Below, one piece after another: positions 43,799 to 58,677 of a DNA stretch of 64,000 bases (within the stretch, counting starts at the first letter, position 1; each line of letters begins with the position of its first letter). A program made the translations under genes and the position numbers. The stretch spans positions 186,001-250,000 of the forward strand of contig CP129469.1 in NCBI GenBank assembly GCA_030583665.1, read 5' to 3'. The notes beneath the pieces are model-generated. The model was not told the DNA's origin and ran no database searches. It saw only the letters and a program-made list of their open reading frames with translations. The stretch is from Candidatus Jettenia sp. AMX2 (GTDB lineage: Bacteria > Planctomycetota > Brocadiia > Brocadiales > Brocadiaceae).

Positions 43799-44248
43799 TT
43801 TTTCAGCAACTTCAAAAGAATTTTTCGTATCATCTCCTTTCATAAGAATCATTTCTTTGTATATTTAAGTGTTTCTAAATATTTTCGTAATGCTAAATTT
43901 GAAACTATTATTTCACTTTTGAAATTCGACATAGATAAATTTCGTCTGTAAGATAATTTTAACCTTACGATGCATTGTACTAACATATTGTTTGTAAAGA
44001 AATTATGTGTTTTGATTGTTTTTTTTGCTTTTTTGGATAAAAAGGAATGAATATTGTTCATTTTAGCCACCGAATTAATTGCAAATAAAAGTTATTTTTA
44101 GAGACAGATAAAATAATATTTGACAAAAGTATGGCCTACTTATATGTTATATCGGTTTTTTAATTAGAATATCGCGTATAATCTACGTTTGGTTTTGGGT
44201 GTGAGAATTTTTAAGTAACTTTAATAATTTGTAAAGATGGAGGTTATG
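43799..44248. other. Upstream region of the respiratory supercluster
   Basis: The 450-bp gap is very A+T-rich and holds a promoter at 44120-44148. A second TATAAT near 44175 has no good -35. No credible gene was seen. Confidence 0.5.
44120..44148 (+). promoter_or_regulatory. Sigma70-type promoter of the cytochrome cluster
   Basis: TTGACA, 17-bp spacer, TATGTT, about 100 bp before the cupredoxin ATG at 44249. It is the most likely start of the transcript covering 44.2-54.2 kb. Confidence 0.6.
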
Positions 44249-45010
44249 ATGGTTAAAAGTTTGCAGCTAATGATTATCAGTAGTGTGTTGATGGGTACAG
44301 GCGTAATTAATGGGATCATGGGGATAAGTACGAAAGCGATGGCTGCGGGCAAGGTGCCTGTTTATACCGAGGTGGAAGTAAGCGATGGAGGGACGATTGC
44401 TGGTACGGTTACCTTTGATGGTGATATCCCCGGAATAAAAATATTAAAGGTTGACAAGGACGAACAAACATGTGGTCATGATAACAGGCAATCAGAGGAA
44501 TTAGTAATTAACGGAGACTCTAAGGGTATTAAGAACGTTGTGGTTTCCCTCGTTGATATTGCTGCCGGTAAAAAAGCAGATACAACAACCGAGGTATTAG
44601 ACCAGAAAGAATGTGTATTTATGCCTCATGTGCTTGCAATTTCTGCCGGAAGTAGCGTAGACCTTCTCAACAGTGACAATATTATGCATAATCTTCATTC
44701 CTGGTCTATTAAGAATCCTGCCTTTAATGAAGGTGTTTCCGGCGGTGGAAAATTAACGAAGAAATTTGATATCCCGGAAATAGTAAAAATAACCTGTGAT
44801 GTGCATAAGTGGATGAGTGCTTTTATCGTTGTGAATGGCAATCCTTATTTTGCTGTTACCGATGAAAATGGTAAATTTAAAATAGAAGATGTACCGGCGG
44901 GTTCGTATAAGATTGAGGCGTGGCAGGAAAAATTGGGAAAAAAGAAGGGTGATGTTGTTGTAAAGCCTAAAGAAGAGGTTGTGGTTGATTTTGCTTATGC
45001 GAAGAAATAA
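44249..45010 (+). CDS. Cupredoxin-like (type 1 copper) secreted protein with C-terminal beta domain
   Basis: ATG 44249 has GGAGG 5 nt upstream and a signal peptide ending around KAMAAG (residue 30). The middle domain has the blue-copper ligand set: H147 (IMHNLH) and C183-x2-H186-x2-M189 (TCDVHKWM). The C-terminal 60 residues form a carboxypeptidase regulatory-like strand set (AVTDENGKFKIEDVPAGSYKIEAW). The protein should be exported to the anammoxosome lumen or paryphoplasm and carry electrons. A paralogue with the same layout closes the cluster at 62380. First gene of the cytochrome run. Confidence 0.85.
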   Translation: MVKSLQLMIISSVLMGTGVINGIMGISTKAMAAGKVPVYTEVEVSDGGTIAGTVTFDGDIPGIKILKVDKDEQTCGHDNRQSEELVINGDSKGIKNVVVSLVDIAAGKKADTTTEVLDQKECVFMPHVLAISAGSSVDLLNSDNIMHNLHSWSIKNPAFNEGVSGGGKLTKKFDIPEIVKITCDVHKWMSAFIVVNGNPYFAVTDENGKFKIEDVPAGSYKIEAWQEKLGKKKGDVVVKPKEEVVVDFAYAKK

Positions 45011-45071
45011 CAGTGATCAATAAACTAGTTATGGATTGTGAAAATTACTTGTTTGAAAAGGCGCATTGATA

Positions 45072-47153
45072 ATGAATAATTCTAAGGTATTACAGCAGTT
45101 TATGAAAAGAAATATTGTTATATTGTTCTTGTTTACCATAACAATTCTTTCGCCTCTTTTGCTTTCCAGTAAGGTATTAGCAAATAATGCGGTGGCCCAT
45201 GCTACTGAAGAAGAGTCTCCTGGCATGGAATTACCGCAATTTGAAGCGGGTCAGGCCCCTGAGGGTGAGAGTGGAGCAACGCCTGAAGCTGCAGAAGAGG
45301 AAGAGTTGGAGGTGGTTCAATACCGGACATTTTTTGGGTTAGACTCCCGTGTTGTTGTTTGGATTGTTTCCGAGCTGCATCTTATGTTTGCAGCATTCGT
45401 TCTTGGCGTTCCTATTTTTGCGGTAATTGTTGAAATTGTTGGTTACAAGGGTGGAGACGTGAAATATGATAAAATGGCGAAGGAATTTACCAAACTCCTG
45501 TCTGCTGCTTTTGCTACCACGGCATCGCTTGGTGGACTGCTTGCATTCTGCCTTTTTGGTCTTTATCCTGAGTTCATGAGCCACATGACGAATGTCTTTG
45601 CTCCAACCATGTATATTTATGCCTTGTTATTTTTCGGAGAGGCGTTTACCCTTTACGGATATTATTATTCGTGGGATATTCTTAAGGGAACTGCGTTCAG
45701 GAAATGGTCCCACATATCGCTTGGAGTCATGCTCAATCTCTTCGGCACATCTTTGATGTTCCTGACCAATTCATGGGCAACCTATATGATGAGTCCCAGT
45801 GGCGTTTCACCTGCAACAGGCAGAGTATTAAGTTTGTATCATGCCTTTTATAATGAGCTATGGATGCCGGTAAATATTCACAGGTTAATCGCTAATGTAT
45901 GTTTTGGCGGATTTATTGTTGGGGCGTATGCGGCAGTGAAATTTCTGGGAGCCAGGACGGAAGAGGAAAAAGCACATTACGACTGGATGGGGTATGTTGG
46001 TAACTTTATTGGTATAGGGGCGCTGATCCCATTGCCATTTGCAGGATACTGGCTGGGCCGGGAGGTTTACAGCGCCAGCCCTGTAATGGGCAATATTATG
46101 ATGGGGGGAGCTTTCTCCTGGACATTTATTATTCAGGCTATCCTGATCGGCATGCTCTTTATTGGGGCCAACTACTACCTCTGGCTGGGAATGGGAAGAA
46201 TTAAAGGCTCCGAGCGTTACACGAAATTCATTAAGTATCTGGTGTTCATAATTTTTGCATGTTTTGCCGTGTGGCTGACCCCGCATAATCTGCCTTTAAG
46301 CGGTGAAGAAAGGGCTATGATTGGCGAGCAATACCACCCCTTTTCCAAGTATTTTGGTGTTATGGCTGCAAAAAATGCGGTAGTTAATATGATTATTCTT
46401 GCAACGTTTTTTTCGTTTCTTATCTATCGCCGGAGCAATAAGGGTGAAACGGTACCATTTTCAGAACAGGGAAGGGCCGGTAAGATTGGCATATTTTCAG
46501 CTCTTATCTTCTGTTTGTTGATGCTGGTTTCCTATGCAGTATCACTGAACTTTGTAGAGCTTGAGGCCAACATAAAGGAATTTGTCAAGCCATTGATAAC
46601 TTCATTATATATTCAGTCATTTGCAGTTGGCCTGGCTGCATTCCTGACATTTAAAAACAAAGGAAAGTTGGCACAAACCATGCTGTTTGCTGTAACCGCA
46701 TGTATTGCAGTGCTCTACTTCTGGTATTATGGGTTTGAAGTTATGCAGAAGGCAAATCTGGTCTTACGATATTTGTCTGTAACACAGGTTTCCATTGTGA
46801 TGAGTTGCCTGATTATGAATGCTGTTATTGACATCTTTGTGTTCCGCAAAGCGAAGCTGGTCGGAGGTATTAGCTGGGGGAAAATGCCGGTAAGATCCCA
46901 ATATGCGTTAATTCTTTTGTGTATCGTCATTGTCATCCTGATGGGTTTGATGGGCTTTATACGTTCCGGTTTACGGATGGACTGGCATGTCTATGGTATA
47001 TTGCAGGATACCTCACAATGGGCATATACTCCGACATTATCATTTATGGGGCGTGTGGTTGGCCTGATTGTTGCCCTTTTCCTTGGCCTTGTTGCATTTG
47101 TATTTTGGCTGGCAAACCTTGGTGAGTCAAAAGGGAAAACGGCAACTCAATAG
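45072..47153 (+). CDS. Cytochrome bd-type (CydA-like) multi-spanning membrane protein
   Basis: ATG 45072 gives 693 aa. After a signal-like segment and an acidic linker (residues about 40-80) come many membrane helices. The first half follows CydA: His in VSELHLMFAAF (like the first heme ligand), a GEAFTLYG segment at the position of the conserved Glu-containing CydA helix, and VNIHRLIANVCFGGF (like heme b558 ligand His186). The protein is longer than ordinary CydA, and no cydB is present. In nitrite oxidisers and anammox bacteria such bd-like proteins occur beside nxr. It probably moves electrons between quinone or cytochrome c pools and the NXR module; oxidase activity is doubtful in an anaerobe. 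Confidence 0.8.
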   Translation: MNNSKVLQQFMKRNIVILFLFTITILSPLLLSSKVLANNAVAHATEEESPGMELPQFEAGQAPEGESGATPEAAEEEELEVVQYRTFFGLDSRVVVWIVSELHLMFAAFVLGVPIFAVIVEIVGYKGGDVKYDKMAKEFTKLLSAAFATTASLGGLLAFCLFGLYPEFMSHMTNVFAPTMYIYALLFFGEAFTLYGYYYSWDILKGTAFRKWSHISLGVMLNLFGTSLMFLTNSWATYMMSPSGVSPATGRVLSLYHAFYNELWMPVNIHRLIANVCFGGFIVGAYAAVKFLGARTEEEKAHYDWMGYVGNFIGIGALIPLPFAGYWLGREVYSASPVMGNIMMGGAFSWTFIIQAILIGMLFIGANYYLWLGMGRIKGSERYTKFIKYLVFIIFACFAVWLTPHNLPLSGEERAMIGEQYHPFSKYFGVMAAKNAVVNMIILATFFSFLIYRRSNKGETVPFSEQGRAGKIGIFSALIFCLLMLVSYAVSLNFVELEANIKEFVKPLITSLYIQSFAVGLAAFLTFKNKGKLAQTMLFAVTACIAVLYFWYYGFEVMQKANLVLRYLSVTQVSIVMSCLIMNAVIDIFVFRKAKLVGGISWGKMPVRSQYALILLCIVIVILMGLMGFIRSGLRMDWHVYGILQDTSQWAYTPTLSFMGRVVGLIVALFLGLVAFVFWLANLGESKGKTATQ

Positions 47154-47311
47154 CAAGCTGAGTATAGAAGACATAATAAGCTGGACAAAAGAAAGTTAAC
47201 TGGCTTGAGAGAAGCATGGAAGATGTTGATGTGAGGTAAGCGACATAGGAATGTTGCAGTTGTAATCGGATAAAATCTTAAGATAGTAAAATGAAAGCAT
47301 AGAGAAAACTT

Positions 47312-48262
47312 ATGAATAAAAGCATGTTAAAAATTGCAGCTTTTGGAATAGCAGTTATAGGATTTTATATCTATATTACGGTGTATGTTGCAGGGCTTTC
47401 CGGTACAGGGGGCGGTGGTGATGCAGGGGGGGTTAGTCCCGAGGCTGGTGAAGAAATATTTTGGGGCGACGGACAATGTGGTACCTGCCATAAGATAGGT
47501 TCAACCGGAAGTGCGACTAGGGGACCTGATCAGGAAAATCTTGCATTGCGTGCAGAAGACCGTGCAAAAGAACTGGGAATGGCTTCCGGGCTTGATTATC
47601 TTGTGGAGTCGATTGTCGATCCGGATAAATATATTGTGGAAGGGTATGATAAAATTATGCCCAAGGTTTACGATCCGCCCATCATGCTATCTCGTGAAAA
47701 AATTCTGGCTGTGCTGGCCTATCTTCAGTCTCTGGGTGGAGATCCCGATATTAACGCCATTATGAAATACAAGGATAAGATACCTGAAGCTTCCAAAAAG
47801 AAGATTAAGAAATGGGTACCGCCTATCGTTGTTGATGTTAAGGAAGGTGAGAAGGTGTTTTTTGATGAAACGCGCCCTGTTACCTGCGGTAAATGCCATG
47901 TTATCAACGGAAAAGGTAAGAAAGTAGGCCCGGAACTTACCGGTATTGGTGCGATTCAGACACCGGAATACCTTATCGAATCAGTCCTTCAGCCCAGCGC
48001 AGTAATTGTGAAGGGGTATGAAACGATGTATGTTATCACAGAAGATGGTATTCCCTATAACGGATTGATTAAAAGTGAAACAGATGAGGAATTGGTACTC
48101 TTGCTGGAAGAGAGCGGTGAAATTGAGGAGATTGTGATTCCAAAGGATGAGATTGAAGATATGAGAAGACAGGATGTTTCGATTATGCCAGGTAATATAG
48201 GTGAGTTACTGAGTGTAAGAGATTTTTATGGAATTATATCCTTTTTGATGAGTCAAAAATAG
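47312..48262 (+). CDS. Membrane-anchored di-heme c-type cytochrome
   Basis: The 316-residue protein has an N-terminal membrane anchor (residues 7-29), and two CXXCH motifs: C56-GTCH60 and C192-GKCH196. Each sits in a cytochrome c domain with a distal Met candidate (KIMPKVYD and YETMYVITEDG). The second domain continues with a PVTCGKCHVIN...LIKSETDEELVLLLE stretch like the Cyt c/DUF1080-associated 'planctomycete cytochrome' domains. It is likely a component of the membrane electron-transfer complex with the bd-like protein upstream. Confidence 0.88.
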   Translation: MNKSMLKIAAFGIAVIGFYIYITVYVAGLSGTGGGGDAGGVSPEAGEEIFWGDGQCGTCHKIGSTGSATRGPDQENLALRAEDRAKELGMASGLDYLVESIVDPDKYIVEGYDKIMPKVYDPPIMLSREKILAVLAYLQSLGGDPDINAIMKYKDKIPEASKKKIKKWVPPIVVDVKEGEKVFFDETRPVTCGKCHVINGKGKKVGPELTGIGAIQTPEYLIESVLQPSAVIVKGYETMYVITEDGIPYNGLIKSETDEELVLLLEESGEIEEIVIPKDEIEDMRRQDVSIMPGNIGELLSVRDFYGIISFLMSQK

Positions 48263-48309
48263 AGCAGAGATGTTGTTCAGCGGAGAAAACAATTGTTAGG
48301 AGTGTGCGA

Positions 48310-49080
48310 ATGGCTAATAAACGCAGTACGTATTTGATGATGTGGATGGTTTTTGTTGTTATTTGTGTGTTTTTGTTTCTCAGATATGCTTCACCAAAGA
48401 TCTTTCAGGTATTAATGGCAAAGGGCCACCCAATGCCTACACCAAGCACTTTAATGATGTGGTATATGATTATGGGTGTGCTTGCCGGTTTGGTATATGC
48501 GACTACCAGTAATCAGAAATTTGCTGATTTTCTTAGTTTTTTGTTGCCGGAACATGGATCACTAATTAAATCTTTCCTGCAGAAAGTGTTGTTTGTAACT
48601 TTTCCGCTTATCATAGGATGGTTTGTATATTCGTGGTCAATTCCCGGGGCAGCTTCGCCAGTTGAATTAAGGATACAGCATCCGACGTTACCGCAAAATT
48701 ACGAAAAACAAGAGAATCCGTTCAGACAAAAAGATGCAGAGACGCAAAGAAGATGTGTTGAAGAAGGTAAGATACTCTTTCAAACATACTGCCGTCCTTG
48801 CCATGGTTCAAAAGCTGACGGGAATGGTCCCTTTGCAAATTCATTTCGTTTAAGACCGATCAACTTCCAGGATCCGGGAACTATTGCAACGGTTGTGGAT
48901 AATTATCTCTTCTGGCGTATTAAGGAAGGTGCCCCTGGCCTTCCTTCCGAATCAACTCCGTGGGATTCCGCTATGCCTGCATGGAAGGATGATTTGAAGG
49001 ATGATGAGATATGGAAAATAATTATGGGTGAATATGATACAGCCGGTGTTATGCCGCGCCAGAGGGAAAAACTTGAATAA
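48310..49080 (+). CDS. Membrane-bound mono-heme c-type cytochrome
   Basis: ATG 48310 is 7 nt after AGGAG; GTG 48304 is the alternative. The protein is 256 aa with three hydrophobic segments (about 8-26, 43-62, 82-104) followed by a single cytochrome c domain with C161-RPCHG and distal Met candidate in WDSAMPAW. The domain has the class I cytochrome c pattern ending DDEIWKIIMGEYD. Co-directional with the other cytochromes. Confidence 0.85.
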   Translation: MANKRSTYLMMWMVFVVICVFLFLRYASPKIFQVLMAKGHPMPTPSTLMMWYMIMGVLAGLVYATTSNQKFADFLSFLLPEHGSLIKSFLQKVLFVTFPLIIGWFVYSWSIPGAASPVELRIQHPTLPQNYEKQENPFRQKDAETQRRCVEEGKILFQTYCRPCHGSKADGNGPFANSFRLRPINFQDPGTIATVVDNYLFWRIKEGAPGLPSESTPWDSAMPAWKDDLKDDEIWKIIMGEYDTAGVMPRQREKLE

Positions 49081-49143
49081 GCTGTAAAGGGGTATAGTTT
49101 TGTTGACATCGCTGTTATTGATGATTAATTTGAGAACGGTATT

Positions 49144-50760
49144 ATGGAAGAAAAACAGACAACTACTATGAGATATTCAGTGAAAAAAAAGGTGATTGGG
49201 TTAGGGCTGGCCGGTGTATGTGCTGGTATTTTTGTGACATCAGCAGATGTCTATGCACAGGCATCGCACTTGTTTCGTGTATATAAACATGAAGTTCCTG
49301 CAAAATTATCCGAAACACAGGAAGTGATAGCCGAAGGAAAAAGAATTTACGAAAAAAGATGCTGGTATTGCCACGGAATAGAAGGTGGCGGTGATGGCCC
49401 GGCCGCAAAAACGATGTTCCCGAAACCAAGGAATTTTGTGAGAAATGAGTATAAAGTCCGTTCCACCACTTTTGGTTCTGTCCCTACGGACGAAGATTTG
49501 TTCAGAATTATTACCAGTGGCATAGAAGGTACGGCGATGCCCTTCTGGTATACGATAAGTGAGGCAGAACGGTGGAAGGTGCTTTATTATGTAAAAACCT
49601 TTAATGAACAATTTAAAAAGAATGATTCGCTTAAGATGTTTTCCACCGGTAATATAATTGCATCAACGCCCGACAGCATTCTGAAAGGACAAGACTTATT
49701 CAGAGAGACGAAATGTTTTGAATGCCACGGTGAAGACGGAAGGGGCAACGGTCCTTTAACTGTTGCTTTGCAGACAGAATGGGATATGCCCTATCGCGCC
49801 CGGGATCTTACGAAAGGGTGGCTTTTTAAAGGGGGAAATACCACAGAAGATATTTATCGTACGGTTTCAACAGGATTTAACGAAACCCCTATGGGTTCAT
49901 ATCTGGAAATACTTTCCGATGAAGACCGCTGGAATATTACCCATTATGTAAAAAGCATAGCGAAAGATATGGCATCGGATGTTGTGGTAAAGGTGAAATT
50001 GGTTGATATTGATGAATTGCCATTAGATGCAGCCGACGAGAACTGGAAAAATGCGATACCGGTAGAAATTCCATTGGCCGGGCAGATTATTGCAGAACCG
50101 CGGTTGTGGGCACCTTCGGCCGATGCGATTATGATTAAAGCCCTGTATAATAATGATGAAATAGCGTTTTTACTGGAATGGGATGATGCTACTAACAGGC
50201 AGGAAGAGATTTTCAGGGATGGGGTTTCATTACAGTTTCCCACACAAATTCCCGAATCCCTGAAAAAACCATATTTTGCTATGGGAGATAAGTCCGGTGC
50301 GGTAAATTTATGGACGTGGAAAGCTTATTGGGGTGAAGATTCCGGTCCCGTTGCAGAATCATCTGAGACCGAACCCGGAGAAGTGTACGAGTTGAATGCC
50401 AAAGGCTTTAAAAATGTGACGGTACAAACATCGGAAAGCCAGAACATAATGGGGAAAGGTGTTTACCAGAACGGAAGGTGGCATGTTGTGTTAAAAAGAT
50501 CTTTACAGACAGATGATGTAAAAGGAGATATTCAGTTTGAAATTGGCAAATTAATCCCCATCGCGTTTGCTGTGTGGGATGGATCAAATAATGATGCGGG
50601 TGCCCAAAAATCTATATCAGCATGGTATTACATTATTCTGGAAAAACCGGCACCGAAAACTATTTTCGCATATGTTATAATTGCGATCGTTATGGGAGTT
50701 AGTATTGAAATGTGGTTTGTCGCAAGATTGCGGAGATTCCCGCCGAAACCAGAAGAGTAA
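49144..50760 (+). CDS. Di-heme cytochrome c fused to an NxrC/ethylbenzene dehydrogenase gamma-like heme b domain, C-terminal TM
   Basis: The 538-residue protein begins with a signal peptide or anchor (about 16-38), then two cytochrome c domains with C73-WYCHG and C191-FECHG. Residues about 290-500 form a domain like NxrC and the gamma subunits of ethylbenzene dehydrogenase/DMSO reductase type II enzymes (MIKALYNNDEIAFLLEWDD, FRDGVSLQFP, VNLWTWKAYWGED, GRWHVVLKRSL, IAFAVWDGSNND). A C-terminal membrane helix (about 508-527) anchors it. NxrC at 54670 shows the same NLW.W.A.W block. The fusion links heme b docking and heme c transfer on one chain and may be the direct membrane outlet of NXR (inference). 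Confidence 0.85.
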   Translation: MEEKQTTTMRYSVKKKVIGLGLAGVCAGIFVTSADVYAQASHLFRVYKHEVPAKLSETQEVIAEGKRIYEKRCWYCHGIEGGGDGPAAKTMFPKPRNFVRNEYKVRSTTFGSVPTDEDLFRIITSGIEGTAMPFWYTISEAERWKVLYYVKTFNEQFKKNDSLKMFSTGNIIASTPDSILKGQDLFRETKCFECHGEDGRGNGPLTVALQTEWDMPYRARDLTKGWLFKGGNTTEDIYRTVSTGFNETPMGSYLEILSDEDRWNITHYVKSIAKDMASDVVVKVKLVDIDELPLDAADENWKNAIPVEIPLAGQIIAEPRLWAPSADAIMIKALYNNDEIAFLLEWDDATNRQEEIFRDGVSLQFPTQIPESLKKPYFAMGDKSGAVNLWTWKAYWGEDSGPVAESSETEPGEVYELNAKGFKNVTVQTSESQNIMGKGVYQNGRWHVVLKRSLQTDDVKGDIQFEIGKLIPIAFAVWDGSNNDAGAQKSISAWYYIILEKPAPKTIFAYVIIAIVMGVSIEMWFVARLRRFPPKPEE

Positions 50761-50828
50761 TGTTACCGATTTGAGAATTAACTATCACGAATCGCACGAA
50801 GATAATAATTTCACGTTAAGGAGTTGTT

Positions 50829-52322
50829 ATGAGAAGAAAATCAAAGGTCTGCTTGCCTCGATACAAGATGACGATTTTAATTGCCGGAGTTTGCCTGTCG
50901 CTGACAACGTTTCTGAATGTTTCCTTCGGACAGGAAAGAAAGATTGAGCCGTTGTATCTGGAATTGAATAAAAAATACCAGATGCCGGAAGAATGGACAA
51001 TGCTCCCCATTGACCTGGAAGACCCTTATAAAAGAATCAAAAACGGACCTCCGCTTGCCAATGTTGTTAAGAAAGCAAAGATTGAGTGGATTTCCCGTTG
51101 GATTGCAAATCCGAAAAAGGTAGTGCCAAATGCAAAGATGCCAAATCTCGGTCTAACATTTGACGAGATTAAAGCCATTTTGGTATATTTGGGGAGTATT
51201 TCAGACTGGGAAACACCGCAGGTTGTGTGGGATGCCTTTTTGCTGAAGGACGAGGATGACTTGGACGATGACGAATATGACGAGATGGAAAAAATTTATA
51301 ACACCGGTAAGGGAGTCTGGGGGCGGGCACGTTGCACGATTTGTCACCCCATCAAAGGTATTGGCGGAAATGTAGGAGTCGGTCCGGATTTGGGGGAGAT
51401 TACTACAAAAACAGGAAGGAACTGGTTACATTACTGGATTAAGGATCCAAAGGATTATTTTTCAGATACGATGATGGCACGGTTTCGTTTCTCTGACAGC
51501 GAGATTCGCGCATTGGTGGAATTTATCATGCGTGACACTCAGTTTAAGCCTGAAGATGAAGATGAAGATGAGGGTGATGGTGTCGGAAAACAGGTTGAAT
51601 CCGGCGAACAGGTATTAAAAGAGAAAGAGTATGCCGGCATAAAGAATGATGAAGCACTCATCGAAAAAGGAAAAAGACTAGTAGAAAAGGCAAGGTGTTT
51701 TGTTTGTCACGATGTGAAAGGTATTACAGAACTCATGCCTGTAGTTGAAGGAAAACGCGAGGGACTGGCAGGGTTTGATAAGCTTCTTTATGAAATAAAC
51801 TGTCTGGTTTGTCACCGTATCCAGAATAAGGGGGGTACTTATGCACCAAATCTGACATTTGTGGGAAGTAAGATTAATATGAAGTGGGAAAAAGAGTTTT
51901 TACAATCCCCTGATATTATTCGGCCGTTTAGTCAGCAGATGCCGAAATTCAATCTAACAGAAGAAGATGCAAATATAGCAACAGAGTTTATGGACAAATA
52001 TCTTTTAAGGAAAGTACCATTGCAGGCTATTTTTGAGGACGGCGTTCCTTCTCAGGAAATTATAGCATCAGGCGAAAAACTTTTTTATGAAAAGGGATGT
52101 AATACCTGCCATGCGGAGGGAGCTAAAGGCGGTGGTGTTGTTGGCCCTAATCTTGAAAAAGTAGGAGACCGCTTACAACCGGCGTACATCCAGTATCATT
52201 TAAGAAATCCGCAGCTGGCAAACCCTCAGGCTGTTGAGCCCAACTTTAGCTTGTCAGATGATGAATTAAAGATGCTGGTAGGGTTTTTGATGGACCATGT
52301 GCAGAAGAAAGAGGGAAAATAA
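50829..52322 (+). CDS. Tetra-heme c-type cytochrome
   Basis: The 497-residue protein has an N-terminal signal segment (ILIAGVCLSLTTFLNVSFG, about 16-36). Four CXXCH motifs: C169-TICH, C290-FVCH, C325-LVCH, C424-NTCH. Distal Met candidates occur in AKMPNLGL, DTMMARFRF and QQMPKFNL. An acidic linker (about 240-265) separates the first domain. AAGGAG is 5 nt upstream of ATG 50829. The next cytochrome starts directly after its stop. It should lie on the anammoxosome-lumen side and act as an electron wire. Confidence 0.9.
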   Translation: MRRKSKVCLPRYKMTILIAGVCLSLTTFLNVSFGQERKIEPLYLELNKKYQMPEEWTMLPIDLEDPYKRIKNGPPLANVVKKAKIEWISRWIANPKKVVPNAKMPNLGLTFDEIKAILVYLGSISDWETPQVVWDAFLLKDEDDLDDDEYDEMEKIYNTGKGVWGRARCTICHPIKGIGGNVGVGPDLGEITTKTGRNWLHYWIKDPKDYFSDTMMARFRFSDSEIRALVEFIMRDTQFKPEDEDEDEGDGVGKQVESGEQVLKEKEYAGIKNDEALIEKGKRLVEKARCFVCHDVKGITELMPVVEGKREGLAGFDKLLYEINCLVCHRIQNKGGTYAPNLTFVGSKINMKWEKEFLQSPDIIRPFSQQMPKFNLTEEDANIATEFMDKYLLRKVPLQAIFEDGVPSQEIIASGEKLFYEKGCNTCHAEGAKGGGVVGPNLEKVGDRLQPAYIQYHLRNPQLANPQAVEPNFSLSDDELKMLVGFLMDHVQKKEGK

Positions 52323-52910
52323 ATGATGGGATATTTTTCACGCAGGAAAAAGATTCTAGCAAGATTAATAATTGTAAGCTCTATTGGAATGTCGGGAATT
52401 TGGACTGTTTCACCAATTGTAAGTGGCCTTGATGTTCCTCCTAATCCTAGAGAGATGGAATTTCTCTTGACACCCAAGAAGACCTTTGAATATTATTGCT
52501 CACCCTGTCATGGGGCGCAGGGTAAAGGTGACGGAACATTTTTTACCATTGATTTAAAACCTAAACCCCGAAATTTAGCCGATGCGGACTATACGGCTAA
52601 AAGGACAGACGATGAACTGATGAAAGCTATTTCCGGAGGTTCCCGGGCTGTTGATAAATCAAATCTTTGTCCACCATGGGGTGGCACTTTATCAGAAAAA
52701 AAGATTAAGGAATTAGTAGCATATATCAGGAGTTTTTCACAACAGGAAGCTGAAAAACCTGTTACCGTAGCAAAAGAGCATGTGACAGAAGCAGCTCAAA
52801 ATAATGTATTGAAAACATCGATACGGTGGTTCTTTCTCCTTGTAGTTGCCTTTGGGTTGGTAGCAGGTGCCGCCAGTGAGTTAAAGAAACTCAGGAATGA
52901 AAAGAAATAA
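52323..52910 (+). CDS. Mono-heme c-type cytochrome with C-terminal membrane anchor
   Basis: The 195-residue protein has a signal/anchor segment (about 10-32), a cytochrome c domain with C59-SPCHGAQGKGDGT, and a C-terminal membrane helix (FFLLVVAFGLVAGAA). The start ATG abuts the preceding stop codon, so translation is coupled to the tetra-heme gene. Length and form resemble cytochrome bc-complex-associated small cytochromes. Confidence 0.87.
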   Translation: MMGYFSRRKKILARLIIVSSIGMSGIWTVSPIVSGLDVPPNPREMEFLLTPKKTFEYYCSPCHGAQGKGDGTFFTIDLKPKPRNLADADYTAKRTDDELMKAISGGSRAVDKSNLCPPWGGTLSEKKIKELVAYIRSFSQQEAEKPVTVAKEHVTEAAQNNVLKTSIRWFFLLVVAFGLVAGAASELKKLRNEKK

Positions 52911-52930
52911 ATTTGGAAAATAAAGGATTT

Positions 52931-54208
52931 ATGTATAAGAAAATATTTGTTGCAATTGATAATTCACCTTATTCGAATTACTGCATTGATTTAGGGATTA
53001 AAATTTCTCAGAAATTCGGTTCCCACCTTCTAGGGTGTCATGTCTACGATGCTACCTTGCATCAAAGGCGTTTCCGGGATATGGAAAAAGGTTTGCCGCC
53101 TCAATATCAGGACGAAAAGGTTCTCCAAAGGCAGCGTGACCTCCATACCTCTCTCATTAATATGGGACTTCGTTTAATCTCGGAATCTTATTTGAATGTA
53201 TTTGAAGAGAAATGCAATCATGCCCGTGTATCACATGAAGAACTCTTATTAGAAGGTAAAAATTATTATGAAATTATCAAAGAGGTACAGCGGGGAGGCT
53301 ATGATCTGGTAATACTTGGTGCACTCGGTTTGGCTGCTGTGAATGATCATGTAATAGGTAGCGTATGTGAAAGGGTTGTAAAAAGTATAAAAACCGATGT
53401 CTTGGTAGTAAAAAATGAACGGATGGATGGGAAAGTGGTGCTTGCTGCAGATGGAAGTGTACCGTCTGTTTCCGGCGTTGCACCTGCAGTTGCTTTGGCA
53501 CGGGCATTTAACCTTTCACTCAACGCTGTTTCAGTTTTTGATCCACACTATCATCGGGTTGCATTTGAAAGTATTGCAAAGGTGCTTTCAAAGGAAGCAG
53601 GACAGATATTCAGATTCAAGGATCAGGAGACCCTTCATGAAGAGATTATTGATAAAGGATTAGCAAAAATCTATCAGAATCATCTTGATCAGGTGTGTTG
53701 TATGGTGAAGGATAGTGGCCTTGAGGTTAATACGACACTGATGGATGGTAAACCATATGATCAGATACTGAAATATCTTTATAAAGAATCTCCGTCTCTT
53801 CTGGTTTTAGGGCGTACCGGTATACATAATACTCATGGATTAGACCTTGGAAGCACAACGGTAAACCTGCTCAGGCTTGCTCCCTGTAATATTCTCATTA
53901 CAAAAGGAAATACAGAGGTAAAAACCGGATCATCTCTGTTCTTTTCAGAAGTTGGTAAATCAACCAATAAAGAAACGCAAAGCAAAAGGACTGGCAAGGA
54001 ATCAAATCTAAGACTATCAGAATTACTGACGTGGACCGAAGAAGCACAGCAACAAACAGAACGTATTCCTTCTTTTATCAGAGGTGTAGTCAGAAAAAAA
54101 ATTGAAGAGTATGCCGTCGGTAAAGGTTATCAGGAAATAACTACTGAAGTTGTAAACGAGGCAAAAGCGGGTCTTGTGGCTGATGATTCTTCTCATCATA
54201 GGGTTTGA
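52931..54208 (+). CDS. Tandem universal stress protein with C-terminal PCP_red-like domain
   Basis: ATG 52931 (MYKKIFVAIDNS) is the usual USP start and has AAAGGA in front; TTG 52913 is possible. Two UspA domains: 1 to about 160 (AIDNSPYSNYC, VILGALGLAAVNDHVIGSVCERVVK) and about 165-315 (LAADGSVPSVSG, LLVLGRTGIHNTHGLDLGSTTVNLL), each ending in a G-x2-G-x9-G-S/T-type nucleotide site. The last 60 residues (LTWTEEAQQQTERIPSFIRG, AVGKGYQEITTEVV) resemble the PCP_red domain seen in protochlorophyllide-reductase-related and nitrogen-redox proteins. It closes the cytochrome run. Probably regulatory; ligand and partner unknown. Confidence 0.85.
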   Translation: MYKKIFVAIDNSPYSNYCIDLGIKISQKFGSHLLGCHVYDATLHQRRFRDMEKGLPPQYQDEKVLQRQRDLHTSLINMGLRLISESYLNVFEEKCNHARVSHEELLLEGKNYYEIIKEVQRGGYDLVILGALGLAAVNDHVIGSVCERVVKSIKTDVLVVKNERMDGKVVLAADGSVPSVSGVAPAVALARAFNLSLNAVSVFDPHYHRVAFESIAKVLSKEAGQIFRFKDQETLHEEIIDKGLAKIYQNHLDQVCCMVKDSGLEVNTTLMDGKPYDQILKYLYKESPSLLVLGRTGIHNTHGLDLGSTTVNLLRLAPCNILITKGNTEVKTGSSLFFSEVGKSTNKETQSKRTGKESNLRLSELLTWTEEAQQQTERIPSFIRGVVRKKIEEYAVGKGYQEITTEVVNEAKAGLVADDSSHHRV

Positions 54209-54232
54209 CTTAGCAAGAAAAATCTTTATAAT
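54205..54232 (+). promoter_or_regulatory. Candidate sigma70 promoter for nxrCB operon
   Basis: TTGACT, 16-bp spacer, TATAAT. It overlaps the stop codon of the upstream USP gene and would give an nxrC leader of about 430 nt. Confidence 0.45.
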
Positions 54233-54345
54233 TTAATCGTATGGGAATTTTCATTTAGTTTAAGCGGTTTTACGACAACCTCTAAAATTTCCCTTTTTCA
54301 AGAGAAATTTTAAGGAGCTACCTTAAAGACTGGTAATTAATTATC

Positions 54346-54378
54346 TCATATCTGTAATAGGTTTTTCACATCTGTAAT
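54346..54378. promoter_or_regulatory. Tandem direct repeat TCAYATCTGTAAT upstream of nxrC
   Basis: Two copies (54346-54358 and 54366-54378) start 20 bp apart, about two helical turns, as expected for adjacent binding of a dimeric regulator on one DNA face. The regulator is unknown. Confidence 0.4.
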
Positions 54379-54516
54379 GCATATTCCAAGAGGTGTGATT
54401 TTCCCACGATGATTATAATTTGATGTAAGTTGTGATAAATACAATACACCAAAATGGATAGATTAAATGCTTTTTGTCGTAACAAACACAGATAGTGTAA
54501 TGGTATGGTTTTTGTT

Positions 54517-54532
54517 GTCTTTAACTAAAGAC
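54517..54532. promoter_or_regulatory. Palindromic operator candidate upstream of nxrC
   Basis: GTCTTTA-AC-TAAAGAC, perfect 7-bp arms, about 140 bp before the nxrC ATG. Form suits a homodimeric transcription factor site. Confidence 0.4.
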
Positions 54533-54669
54533 ATACAAAAAATACGGCATTGGGAAGGAGGTATGATAGGTAAAAATTTTTTAGATAAATTAAGCAATGC
54601 TGAAAAAATAACTCATATAAAAAAATATTTTTGAAGATAGTTAAGACAGGTTTATAGGAGGAATGGGAA

Positions 54670-55647
54670 ATGAAAAAAGGTTATCAGCTATTAAAAAGAT
54701 ACGGTATAACCTTCCTAAGCTGTGCTTTGCTTAGCGTTGCCGCTACTGTGTATGCCGAAGAGACAGCACCAGGGGTTAAGGGGATGAGTGAAGAGGAGTT
54801 TACTCCAGCGGAGGAAGTATTAACGGTAAAATATGTACTAGTGGATAAGCCGTACCATATGGATGTCGAATCACTTCATGGTTATTTTAGTGATGCCCAG
54901 CCGGTAGATGTGCAATTACAAATACAGGATAAGGCATTTCCGAACGGAGGAGGTTCGGTCAGTAGCGCAAATGTGAAAGCAATTCATGACGGGATGCAAA
55001 TCTATTTTCAGGTTACCTGGAATGACCCGACAAAAAATGCAAAGGCAATCGCTATCCAGGAATTCAGGGATGCAGTTGCTTTAATGTTCCCTTTAGGCGC
55101 TGTGGAAATCACGCCTGCAGATCATTTTAGTCCAAGGATGGGTGATAGGGAAAAACCTGTGAATTTATGGCATTGGAAGGCGGATTGGGAAGCGGATTTG
55201 TTGGCAAAAGGTGAGCTGGAGGATGTAGAGGTACAATATCCAAATATGCATGATGACTTTAATTTTAATCCGTATAGTGCCTATTATCATAGAGATTTGA
55301 TTACGAGCATTGCGGTATTGTCTGGAGGAAGGGCTGCCCATAATCTGTTTTCGCAACCTGGGCGCGGAAGAACGGTTGAGGATTTAAATGCTGAGGGTTT
55401 TGGTACGCTTACCTCTCAGGAACATCAGGATGTAAACGGTTGCAGCAGATATAAAGATGGCGTATGGACTGTGATTTTCTACCGTCCTCTGATAACAAAT
55501 GATCCCCATGATGTGCAATTCATCCCTGGTGGAAAGACATTTTTTAATATGGCGGTATGGAATGGCGGAGAAGCGGACAGGAACGGTCAGAAAAATATAT
55601 CGATACAATGGCATCCTGCAATTCTGGAAAAAGTTGCGTGGCAATAA
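54670..55647 (+). CDS. nxrC: Nitrite oxidoreductase gamma subunit (heme b)
   Basis: The 325-residue protein has a signal peptide (residues 1 to about 29, ending TVYAEE) and the ethylbenzene dehydrogenase/DMSO reductase type II gamma fold: VDVQLQIQDKAFPNGGG, IHDGMQIYFQVTWND, REFRDAVALMFP-type block, VNLWHWKADWEAD, YKDGVWTVIFYRPL, FFNMAVWNGGEADRNG. The family binds one heme b with Met/Lys-type ligands and takes electrons from NxrB. A strong ribosome binding site (ATAGGAGG) precedes ATG 54670. Order nxrC-nxrB-chaperone-HExxH-nxrA is compact, 20-70 bp gaps. It would act on the anammoxosome-lumen side. Confidence 0.92.
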   Translation: MKKGYQLLKRYGITFLSCALLSVAATVYAEETAPGVKGMSEEEFTPAEEVLTVKYVLVDKPYHMDVESLHGYFSDAQPVDVQLQIQDKAFPNGGGSVSSANVKAIHDGMQIYFQVTWNDPTKNAKAIAIQEFRDAVALMFPLGAVEITPADHFSPRMGDREKPVNLWHWKADWEADLLAKGELEDVEVQYPNMHDDFNFNPYSAYYHRDLITSIAVLSGGRAAHNLFSQPGRGRTVEDLNAEGFGTLTSQEHQDVNGCSRYKDGVWTVIFYRPLITNDPHDVQFIPGGKTFFNMAVWNGGEADRNGQKNISIQWHPAILEKVAWQ

Positions 55648-56918: not shown

Positions 56919-57713
56919 ATGGTTGTTAACAAAGTTAGTGACCCCAGTCTTTCCGGGGAACTTGAATTAGAAAATCTGCTCACACGCAGCACAATGTATC
57001 AGTTACTTTCTACCTGTTTTCTGCATCCTGAGGAGAAGAATCTTTCAGTTTTCAATAGTGCTGATTTTGATGATTATCAGAAAAAACTGGGAATGTGTTA
57101 TGAGAAGGAAGGTGTTGCTGTTGAATTGCAGAATTGTTTGGGCGAACTCGTATTACAATACAAAGGGACAGCACTTGATGTGCTCAAGAGCGATTACCTG
57201 CGAATCGTTGGTCATACAATCGCTAAAGAGTGCCCATTATACGAGACACAATACGGGGCTGCTCATGTGTATCAGCAAACACATGAATTAGCAGATATTC
57301 AGGGTTTCTACAAGGCATTTGGACTCGAAATGTCTGATGTCGAAAGAGAACGGTGTGACCACATCAGCGTTGAGCTTGAGTTTATGCACTATTTATTATA
57401 TAAACAGGCGTATGCAGCAGAGAACCATGGAGAGGAAAAAGTACAAGTTTGCGTGGATGCACAAAAGAAGTTTTTGAAGGAACATGTAGGAAAGTGGGTG
57501 CCTCTTTTTACGGTCTTGTTTGCCAAAAAGGCAGGAGAGGGATTCTTTTACGCATTGGCAGCTTTAACAAAGGAGTTTATCAGGCTGGAAATGAAGCTGA
57601 TGGATGTCACCACTGAGATGTATAAAGAATCAGACATGAATCAGGAAGCTGTTGCAGGGGCACCCGATGAATGTTTGTCATGTGCTTCTTCAGAAGACGT
57701 TAATGGAGGTTAA
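56919..57713 (+). CDS. NarJ/TorD-type molybdoenzyme chaperone of the nxr operon
   Basis: The 264-residue all-helical protein contains RSTMYQLLSTCFLHPEEK at the N-terminus and the family core LKSDYLRIVGHTIAKECPLYETQYG, then QTHELADIQGFYKAFGLE and RCDHISVELEFMHYLLYKQ. Such chaperones hold the catalytic subunit until Mo-bisPGD is inserted and guard its Tat signal. The position 13 bp after nxrB and ahead of nxrA fits. The C-terminus ends with an acidic tail. Confidence 0.9.
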   Translation: MVVNKVSDPSLSGELELENLLTRSTMYQLLSTCFLHPEEKNLSVFNSADFDDYQKKLGMCYEKEGVAVELQNCLGELVLQYKGTALDVLKSDYLRIVGHTIAKECPLYETQYGAAHVYQQTHELADIQGFYKAFGLEMSDVERERCDHISVELEFMHYLLYKQAYAAENHGEEKVQVCVDAQKKFLKEHVGKWVPLFTVLFAKKAGEGFFYALAALTKEFIRLEMKLMDVTTEMYKESDMNQEAVAGAPDECLSCASSEDVNGG

Positions 57714-57723
57714 ACTGGTTTTT

Positions 57724-58677
57724 ATGAATCTTGAATTTGATCCAAATTTAATTGAGGAAGTTATATTCGGAGAATTGAAAGCGCGGGAGGAAAGAGGTGA
57801 TTTTACCCTCACTACCGAATATCATTCTTTCACCGATCCTGTTTATGAAAACTTTCCTTTGGATGAGAGGCCTGGCCAGTTCCGCAAGATTGAGTGGGAT
57901 TTTTTCAGAAAACTGGGATTTTTTCAGACAATAAAGGAGATTTTTGATGAATTTCCCGGCCTGGAAGAAAGAGTTTCCGGGGGAGTGATTACAAAGGCGA
58001 GAAATCCGTTTGACGAAGGCTCAAATCTGACGAAAGGGCCGAAAGAGGGTAATGAGCAGAAAAGGCTAGTTGTTAAGGTATTGCCCGAACGTTTTCAGGA
58101 GGTTTCTTATCTGAAAAAGCTGGTGCGGCATGAGTTGATGCACGTGACTGATATGCTCAGTGAATCCTTTGGCTATCGCGATGAACGCCTTGGAAGCAAC
58201 CCTATGGAAGAGAGTATTATTAAAGAACGATATGGTGTCTTTTGGGACATCTTTGTCGATAGCCGGTTAATCAGGAATGGGAAAGAAACCGTTTCGGACA
58301 GGGAAGGGCGATACCTGGAGTTTGATGCGCTTTATAAAAAAATTCCATCTGAAGTAAAAGCGGCTATCTTTAATGCATTATGGCAGGATGAGAATTTAAC
58401 TCATGACAGGATATTCGAAATGTCAAAAGATGTGAACAAAGTGGTTGCAATTTCTGAAGGAATGCCAATAATGTCCGCCACAAAAATGAAAAAGTCTCCC
58501 TTGCCCGGCGCACAATGCCCATTATGTCAGTTTCGCACCTACCATTGGGTTGAAAATGTTGAGCAGGATGCATCTTTGGTGGAAAATATCAAAAGGGATT
58601 TTCCCGGATGGGAGCCTGAGGATGGCATTTGCGAACGGTGTTCGGAGGTTTATAAGGTGCGGGTTTCTGTTTGTTGA
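57724..58677 (+). CDS. HExxH protein with C-terminal zinc ribbon, conserved nxr-operon accessory
   Basis: ATG 57724 (MNLEFDPNLIEE) is chosen, 10 bp after the chaperone stop; a longer frame would overlap the chaperone by 60 bp. GGAGG lies 13 nt upstream, somewhat far, and CTG 57715 sits at better spacing. The 317-residue protein has a metalloprotease-like RHELMHVTDMLSESFGY (about residue 137) and a late CPLC...CERC zinc ribbon (about 262-306). No signal peptide. I recognise no named family. Position between chaperone and nxrA suggests a maturation or quality-control role for NxrA, possibly proteolytic; this is inference. Confidence 0.75.
   Translation: MNLEFDPNLIEEVIFGELKAREERGDFTLTTEYHSFTDPVYENFPLDERPGQFRKIEWDFFRKLGFFQTIKEIFDEFPGLEERVSGGVITKARNPFDEGSNLTKGPKEGNEQKRLVVKVLPERFQEVSYLKKLVRHELMHVTDMLSESFGYRDERLGSNPMEESIIKERYGVFWDIFVDSRLIRNGKETVSDREGRYLEFDALYKKIPSEVKAAIFNALWQDENLTHDRIFEMSKDVNKVVAISEGMPIMSATKMKKSPLPGAQCPLCQFRTYHWVENVEQDASLVENIKRDFPGWEPEDGICERCSEVYKVRVSVC

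What the first reader, a model, noticed from the sequence alone, without database searches (positions are those of the whole stretch)
49144..50760. Cytochrome c-NxrC-like fusion protein in the nxr neighbourhood
Two CXXCH cytochrome domains are joined to a heme b gamma-subunit-like domain that resembles NxrC encoded 4 kb downstream, plus a C-terminal membrane anchor. One chain could therefore take the place of NxrC and pass electrons directly to cytochrome c hemes at the membrane. A heme-containing tubule-inducing subunit (NXR-T) has been reported for anammox NXR; whether this is that protein cannot be told from sequence here.
Basis: partly seen in the sequence, partly recalled or inferred. Interest (0 to 1): 0.65.

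Follow-up and report, generated by a model that had tools for sequence, protein, structure and literature searches.

The report
Membrane-anchored alternative NxrC cytochrome fusion
The gene encodes a membrane-anchored protein that joins two cytochrome c domains to a haem-b domain like the NxrC subunit of the nitrite-oxidising enzyme; it belongs to a known but untested family ("alternative NxrC") and most likely belongs to a neighbouring membrane electron-transfer complex rather than being the enzyme's own NxrC.

Summary
Window 49144-50760 encodes 538 aa: a signal peptide, two cytochrome c domains (CXXCH at 73 and 191), an EB_dh/NxrC-type haem-b domain with both haem ligands (M380, K489), and a C-terminal transmembrane helix. 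It is not NXR-T, which is a monohaem c556-type protein (Kustd1705); the closest NXR-T homologue lies elsewhere in this genome. By gene order it is the orthologue of Kuenenia kustd1709. By architecture and neighbours it is the "alternative NxrC" already described in Nitrospina and Nitrospira.

New here: fusions of this kind fall into two classes in Planctomycetota. Class I (35 loci, including four from a hydrazine-synthase-bearing family of the same order) lacks a C-terminal helix, lies beside nxrA/nxrB genes and is the only gamma gene there, so it probably does replace NxrC. Class II (this protein, all Brocadiaceae sampled, one further family and five non-anammox genomes) is a separate clade. 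It has the helix and lies in a cytochrome bd-like/multi-cytochrome cluster. Two genomes carry this cluster with no NxrA.

Best explanation: a three-haem subunit of the bd-like membrane complex that exchanges electrons with NXR, not a substitute for NxrC. This is inferred, not shown.

The parts
49144..50760 (+). alt-NxrC: dihaem cytochrome c / EB_dh (NxrC-like) fusion with C-terminal membrane anchor, 538 aa; kustd1709 position
   Evidence: position compared with the kustd1699-1713 table in PMC6423088
49168..49257 (+). probable signal peptide (M9 to A38); possible alternative start at M9
   Evidence: hydrophobic N-terminus; M9 and A38 conserved in orthologues; inference, no signal-peptide program was run
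49327..49593 (+). cytochrome c domain 1; CXXCH at 49360-49374, likely distal Met132
   Evidence: Pfam, motif and invariance
49684..49959 (+). cytochrome c domain 2; CXXCH at 49714-49728, likely distal Met250
   Evidence: Pfam, motif and invariance
49978..50652 (+). EB_dh / NxrC-like haem b domain; ligands Met380 (50281-50283) and Lys489 (50608-50610)
   Evidence: AlphaFold2 pLDDT 78.5
50665..50724 (+). C-terminal transmembrane helix, followed by RLRRFPPKPEE
   Evidence: hydropathy
45066..47153 (+). cytochrome bd-like membrane protein (kustd1712 position), neighbour of every class II fusion whose contig covers it
47312..48262 (+). dihaem cytochrome at the kustd1711 position (characterised in Kuenenia as Ca-tuned, about +350 mV)
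   Evidence: PMC11791136
48304..49080 (+). monohaem membrane cytochrome (kustd1710 position)
50829..52322 (+). multihaem cytochrome (kustd1708 position, annotated tetrahaem in Kuenenia)
52323..52910 (+). monohaem cytochrome with a C-terminal hydrophobic segment (kustd1707 position)
54670..55647 (+). NxrC proper, 325 aa, first gene of the nxrC-B-torD-A group
   Evidence: phmmer to 7b04_C E 7.8e-143 over 325 aa
58748..62197 (+). NxrA catalytic subunit; Asn70, Asp71 and Asp275 present

Best explanation
The gene encodes an 'alternative NxrC' (alt-NxrC), a secreted, membrane-anchored electron-transfer protein with three probable haems (two c, one b). It belongs to the cytochrome bd-like membrane complex encoded around it (45066-52910). 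Its haem domains lie on the anammoxosome-lumen side, held by one C-terminal helix. Most likely it exchanges electrons with soluble NXR, directly from the exposed NxrC haem b or through the dihaem cytochrome or cupredoxins of the cluster, and passes them along its c haems to the bd-like membrane unit, for instance towards the quinone pool in reverse electron transport. It is not the gamma subunit of the NXR tubule; NxrC at 54670-55647 is. Shown here: domains, haem ligands, anchor, clade, gene neighbourhood and distribution. Inferred: membership in one complex, the NXR contact and the direction of electron flow.
For: Class II EB_dh domains are monophyletic (100/98) and separate from anammox NxrC (100/97). 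Proteins with the C-terminal helix lie in a bd-like cluster wherever the sequence held covers that side (one anammox copy is cut by a contig end), and every fused protein without it in an NXR-type operon (35 loci) lies beside nxrA or nxrB. Haem b ligands are kept in all 16 anammox class II proteins in the tree. Kuenenia kustd1705-1712 proteins are 84-99.5% in the membrane fraction (PMC11897245). In Kuenenia, kustd1709 protein signal is about a tenth of kustd1704, and its transcript falls 2.2-fold in NO-fed cells against 5- to 9-fold for nxrA, nxrB and nxrC (PMC6423088). Purified NXR is Kustd1700/1703/1704 (PMC8387239). In Nitrospira, alt_nxrC_2 (signal peptide, one TM helix, dihaem, beside bd-like_3) is transcribed about 4-fold less than nxrC_2, and the same anchor/relay role was proposed (PMC6606698).
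Against: No interaction, purification or redox data exist for this protein. The EB_dh domain could still bind NxrB: the loop it lacks is also missing from EBDH gamma (2ivf_C), which is a true gamma subunit. Electron direction is unknown. Nitrospira and Nitrospina sequences were not fetched, so equivalence with their alt_NxrC rests on published descriptions.
Confidence: 0.62

Rival explanations
1. The fusion is an interchangeable gamma subunit: part of the NxrA-NxrB pool binds it instead of NxrC, giving a membrane-bound NXR whose electrons pass from haem b straight to c haems in one chain.
For: The fold and both haem b ligands are kept. Cousins without the anchor are the only gamma gene beside nxrA/nxrB in many Planctomycetota. 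Lower abundance fits a minor isoform.
Against: Separate clade from NxrC and from class I. Lacks the roughly 45-60 residue YPN...AxGNP loop and the Arg before the haem lysine that are kept in class I and NxrC. The cluster occurs without NxrA in two genomes. Purified NXR has NxrC (PMC8387239).
Confidence: 0.16
2. The fusion routes NXR electrons to the HAO-like nitrite reductase (HAOr): its dihaem half docks where the HAOr redox partner Kustc0457 docks, or feeds that partner.
For: The dihaem half matches 6h5l_B (E 2e-54 over 215 aa) and is about 41% identical to the partner gene beside an octahaem gene in this genome. HAOr partners group with class II in the dihaem tree (90/85). That locus also has a cupredoxin paralogue of the gene at 44237. 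NXR electrons were proposed to serve nitrite reduction (PMC8387239).
Against: The grouping is not strongly supported. HAOr already has its own partner. Class II occurs in Planctomycetota without hydrazine synthase. The fusion is membrane-anchored.
Confidence: 0.1
3. The bd-like complex and its fusion subunit are a general cytochrome c / membrane redox module with no specific link to NXR; the EB_dh domain is a structural leftover.
For: G061 and G020 have the cluster and no NxrA. All six non-anammox class II proteins have lost the haem b ligand pair.
Against: In anammox the ligands are fully kept, the cluster abuts nxr in the Brocadiaceae loci that span it, and it is reported as conserved in three nitrite-oxidising lineages (PMC3578206).
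Confidence: 0.12

Closest known systems
alt_NxrC of Nitrospina gracilis and alt_NxrC_2 (NITMOv2_3640) of Nitrospira moscoviensis (PMC3578206, PMC6606698)
   Same: Signal peptide, two CXXCH haem c sites, DMSO-reductase-type haem b domain, C-terminal membrane helix, gene beside c-type cytochromes and a cytochrome bd-like protein; reported as conserved in anammox bacteria.
   Different: Compared by published description only; sequences were not fetched. Neighbour set and length differ slightly (about 60 kDa here, 66.8 kDa in N. moscoviensis).
Kuenenia stuttgartiensis Kustd1709 ('hypothetical diheme protein')
   Same: Same position among kustd1705-1713 neighbours; a Kuenenia-type genome (G088) carries a 67% identical fusion there.
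   Different: Different genus; only annotated as dihaem in the table read; the haem b domain is not mentioned there.
NXR-C (Kustd1704, 7b04_C) and EBDH gamma (2ivf_C)
   Same: EB_dh domain by sequence, Met/Lys haem b ligands.
   Different: No cytochrome c domains and no membrane helix; NXR-C has a longer loop and an Arg that the fusion lacks.
Kustc0457, dihaem redox partner of the HAO-like reductase Kustc0458 (6h5l_B)
   Same: Dihaem half homologous over 215 residues (E 2e-54).
   Different: Stand-alone, no EB_dh domain, no anchor; bound to an octahaem protein.
NXR-T (Kustd1705)
   Same: Haem-containing; encoded in the nxr cluster in Kuenenia.
   Different: Monohaem c556-like four-helix bundle; no significant sequence match to the fusion.

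Membership tests
Alternative NxrC (alt_NxrC) | two haem c sites plus an EB_dh haem b domain in one chain | tested here: met
Alternative NxrC (alt_NxrC) | signal peptide and membrane helix | tested here: met
   C-terminal helix by hydropathy; signal peptide by inspection only
Alternative NxrC (alt_NxrC) | gene beside a cytochrome bd-like protein and c-type cytochromes | tested here: met
Alternative NxrC (alt_NxrC) | sequence orthology with Nitrospira/Nitrospina members | not tested
NXR gamma subunit (NxrC) proper | EB_dh domain with Met/Lys haem b ligands | tested here: met
NXR gamma subunit (NxrC) proper | clusters with NxrC in phylogeny | tested here: not met
   separate clades
NXR gamma subunit (NxrC) proper | loop YPN...AxGNP and Arg near the haem lysine, shared by class I and NxrC | tested here: not met
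   caveat: EBDH gamma also lacks the loop
NXR gamma subunit (NxrC) proper | co-purifies with NxrA-NxrB | not testable with these tools
   published purification contains Kustd1704 (PMC8387239)
NXR-T | monohaem c556-like four-helix protein inducing tubules | tested here: not met
   two haems and different domains; no significant similarity
Kustc0457-type HAOr redox partner | dihaem domain homologous to 6h5l_B | tested here: met
Kustc0457-type HAOr redox partner | encoded beside an octahaem HAO-like protein | tested here: not met
   the true partner is elsewhere in this genome, L129

The most novel reading that the evidence does not exclude
Planctomycetal nitrite oxidoreductases come in two designs. 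In many lineages, including a hydrazine-synthase-bearing family of the same order as the window's genome, the gamma subunit itself is a dihaem cytochrome c fusion, so one chain wires the enzyme's iron-sulfur chain through haem b to c haems. In Brocadiaceae and one further family the roles are split between a plain NxrC for the enzyme and a membrane-anchored fusion for the bd-like complex, where the EB_dh domain could act as the NXR docking and electron-entry site.
Probability: 0.45. Interest if true: 0.6.

Novelty: new member of a known kind. Interest (0 to 1): 0.42.

Why it matters
How electrons leave NXR in anammox bacteria is an open question stated in the structural paper (PMC8387239): NxrC's haem b is exposed, NXR-T is too far away and too low in potential, and the acceptor is unknown. 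A three-haem, membrane-held protein with an NxrC-type domain encoded beside the nxr genes is a concrete candidate. The contrast between fusions that seem to be the gamma subunit and fusions that belong to the bd-like complex gives a comparative way to test which features make an EB_dh domain an NXR subunit.

Tried and rejected
Longer tblastn match spans in orthologous loci suggested an inserted domain; ORF checks showed all orthologues have about the same length, and I take the extra span to be a match to the upstream cytochrome gene. NXR-T identity: rejected. Full-length AlphaFold2 was too poor to use (pLDDT 47); the EB_dh-only job was usable. PDB sequence searches with the own-genome c556-like candidates found nothing. 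I first took loss of the loop as evidence against NxrB binding, then downgraded it because EBDH gamma also lacks it. A literature search for a fused gamma in Planctomycetota found no paper holding all five terms, which is weak evidence of novelty. No supplementary files and not the de Almeida complexome paper could be read.

Full report
What is there. The ORF at 49144-50760 (+) encodes 538 aa. It has an N-terminal hydrophobic signal, two cytochrome c domains, an EB_dh domain and a C-terminal hydrophobic helix. The EB_dh half matches NXR subunit C of Kuenenia (7b04_C) and ethylbenzene dehydrogenase gamma (2ivf_C); the dihaem half matches 6h5l_B, the dihaem subunit of a Kuenenia HAO-like complex, at E 2e-54 over 215 residues. 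A profile of the EB_dh alignment matches 7b04_C over its whole length; that alignment includes NxrC sequences, so this is not independent evidence. The haem b ligands of NXR-C, Met155 and Lys305 (PMC8387239), align with M380 and K489, and both are conserved in all aligned orthologues that cover them. AlphaFold2 on the EB_dh domain gave pLDDT 78.5, pTM 0.84; on the full chain only 47.

What it is not. NXR-T is Kustd1705, a monohaem four-helix cytochrome (PMC8387239), and is reported to be in the nxr cluster only in Kuenenia. In a Kuenenia-type genome a 191-aa c556-like gene lies between the Usp and NxrC genes; its best match in the window's genome is at C1:2.34 Mb (45% identity), and it shows no significant similarity to the fusion. 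In the window the same interval (54209-54669) holds no such gene.

Which gene it is. Gene order around it matches the published Kuenenia list kustd1699-1713, placing it at kustd1709, 'hypothetical (diheme) protein' (PMC6423088). Orthologues of about the same length and roughly 70-76% identity were found in 23 loci, which carry anammox or unclassified Planctomycetota names. Luecker et al. 2013 (PMC3578206) described 'alt_NxrC' in Nitrospina with membrane helices, two haem c sites and a haem b domain, and listed an alternative NxrC among the genes shared by Nitrospina, Nitrospira and Kuenenia. Mundinger et al. 2019 (PMC6606698) described alt_NxrC_2 of Nitrospira moscoviensis: signal peptide, one C-terminal helix, dihaem, beside a bd-like gene and two cytochromes, and proposed that it may anchor NXR. 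The window protein fits these descriptions; I did not compare sequences with those genera.

Two classes of fusion. A search of 294 Planctomycetota genomes for EB_dh, the fusion, the bd-like protein and NxrA, followed by reading 56 loci, gave a clean split. Class I: 35 fused proteins from NXR-type operons that end at the EB_dh domain, with no C-terminal helix, each beside an NxrA-like and/or NxrB gene, and with no stand-alone NxrC in the stretch read. In at least twelve of these genomes the fusion is the only EB_dh gene found. Their NxrA proteins keep Asn70 and Asp275 wherever the site is covered. Class II: 22 proteins with a helix-bearing tail, in a bd-like / multi-cytochrome cluster wherever the sequence read covers that side (one anammox copy is cut at a contig start). 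These are Brocadiaceae, one member of another anammox family (G292), and five non-anammox genomes (G061 twice, G037, G081, G020, G004). The window protein is class II. Two further fusions at L118 flank a distant Mo-enzyme and were left out of both classes.

Phylogeny and signatures. In the EB_dh tree class II is one clade (100/98) and anammox NxrC another (100/97), so the fusion is not a recent copy of the NxrC downstream. Class I and NxrC share a loop (YPN...AxGNP, median 71-74 residues between two anchors) and an Arg close to the haem lysine; anammox class II typically has about 26 residues there (one, G292, has 65) and lacks the conserved Arg. The loop is also short in EBDH gamma, so this is suggestive only. 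The haem b ligands are kept in 35/35 class I, 15/15 NxrC and 16/16 anammox class II, but the pair is broken in all six non-anammox class II proteins. G061 and G020 carry the class II cluster but no NxrA (only weak general Mo-enzyme similarity in G061), so the cluster can exist without NXR; these are incomplete genome bins, so absence is not certain. In the dihaem tree the HAO-like reductase partners (Kustc0457 type) fall near class II (90/85, not strong). In this genome that partner lies beside an octahaem gene and a cupredoxin paralogue of the gene at 44237.

Other people's data. Purified Kuenenia NXR contains Kustd1700, 1703 and 1704 (PMC8387239). Kustd1709 signal is about a tenth of Kustd1704 in the proteomic table, and its transcript fell 2.2-fold in NO-fed cells against 9.3-, 4.9- and 8.2-fold for nxrA, nxrB and nxrC (PMC6423088). 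kustd1705-1712 products are 84-99.5% in the membrane fraction (PMC11897245), although soluble NXR also sediments there. The neighbour Kustd1711 has haems near +350 mV (PMC11791136).

Interpretation. The simplest account is that this protein is the NXR-facing or cytochrome-facing subunit of the bd-like membrane complex and exchanges electrons with NXR rather than replacing NxrC. Domains, ligands, clade, anchor and neighbourhood are shown; complex membership, partner and direction are inferred.

Limits. Anammox class II sequences are close relatives, so the association of helix and bd-like cluster rests on roughly seven lineages. Alignments of divergent class II members are uncertain around the lost ligands. 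The class labels I and II were set by the C-terminal helix; the neighbourhoods were read separately. No supplementary files and no complexome paper could be read.

Noticed in passing
window 52913-54208: Protein with two universal-stress-protein domains and a C-terminal PCP_red domain (otherwise known from protochlorophyllide reductase); conserved next to bd-like clusters, also in some non-anammox genomes.
   Followed up: partly
window 57652-58677: No Pfam match, but an HELMH (HExxH) motif and two CxxC pairs; homologues lie in nxr operons of many Planctomycetota, so possibly a maturation factor.
   Followed up: partly
L129 (G000:C1:3068000-3084000): Octahaem HAO-like gene with a dihaem partner homologous to the fusion's first half and a cupredoxin paralogous to window 44237-45010: the NXR and HAO-like loci share two kinds of carrier.
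   Followed up: partly
L089-L092: Hydrazine-synthase-bearing genomes of a second family in the order whose nxr operon has the fused protein as the only gamma gene there and which gave no match to the bd-like protein.
   Followed up: partly
L118 (G037): Two dihaem-EB_dh fusions flank a Mo-enzyme only 24% identical to NxrA.
   Followed up: no
L096, L097, L099, L100, L105, L106: NxrA-like proteins have Cys in place of Asp71, the iron-sulfur ligand described as unusual in Kuenenia NXR.
   Followed up: no
G000:C1:2339855-2340208 (L169): Closest homologue of the c556-type gene at the NXR-T position of a Kuenenia-type genome, far from the nxr cluster.
   Followed up: partly
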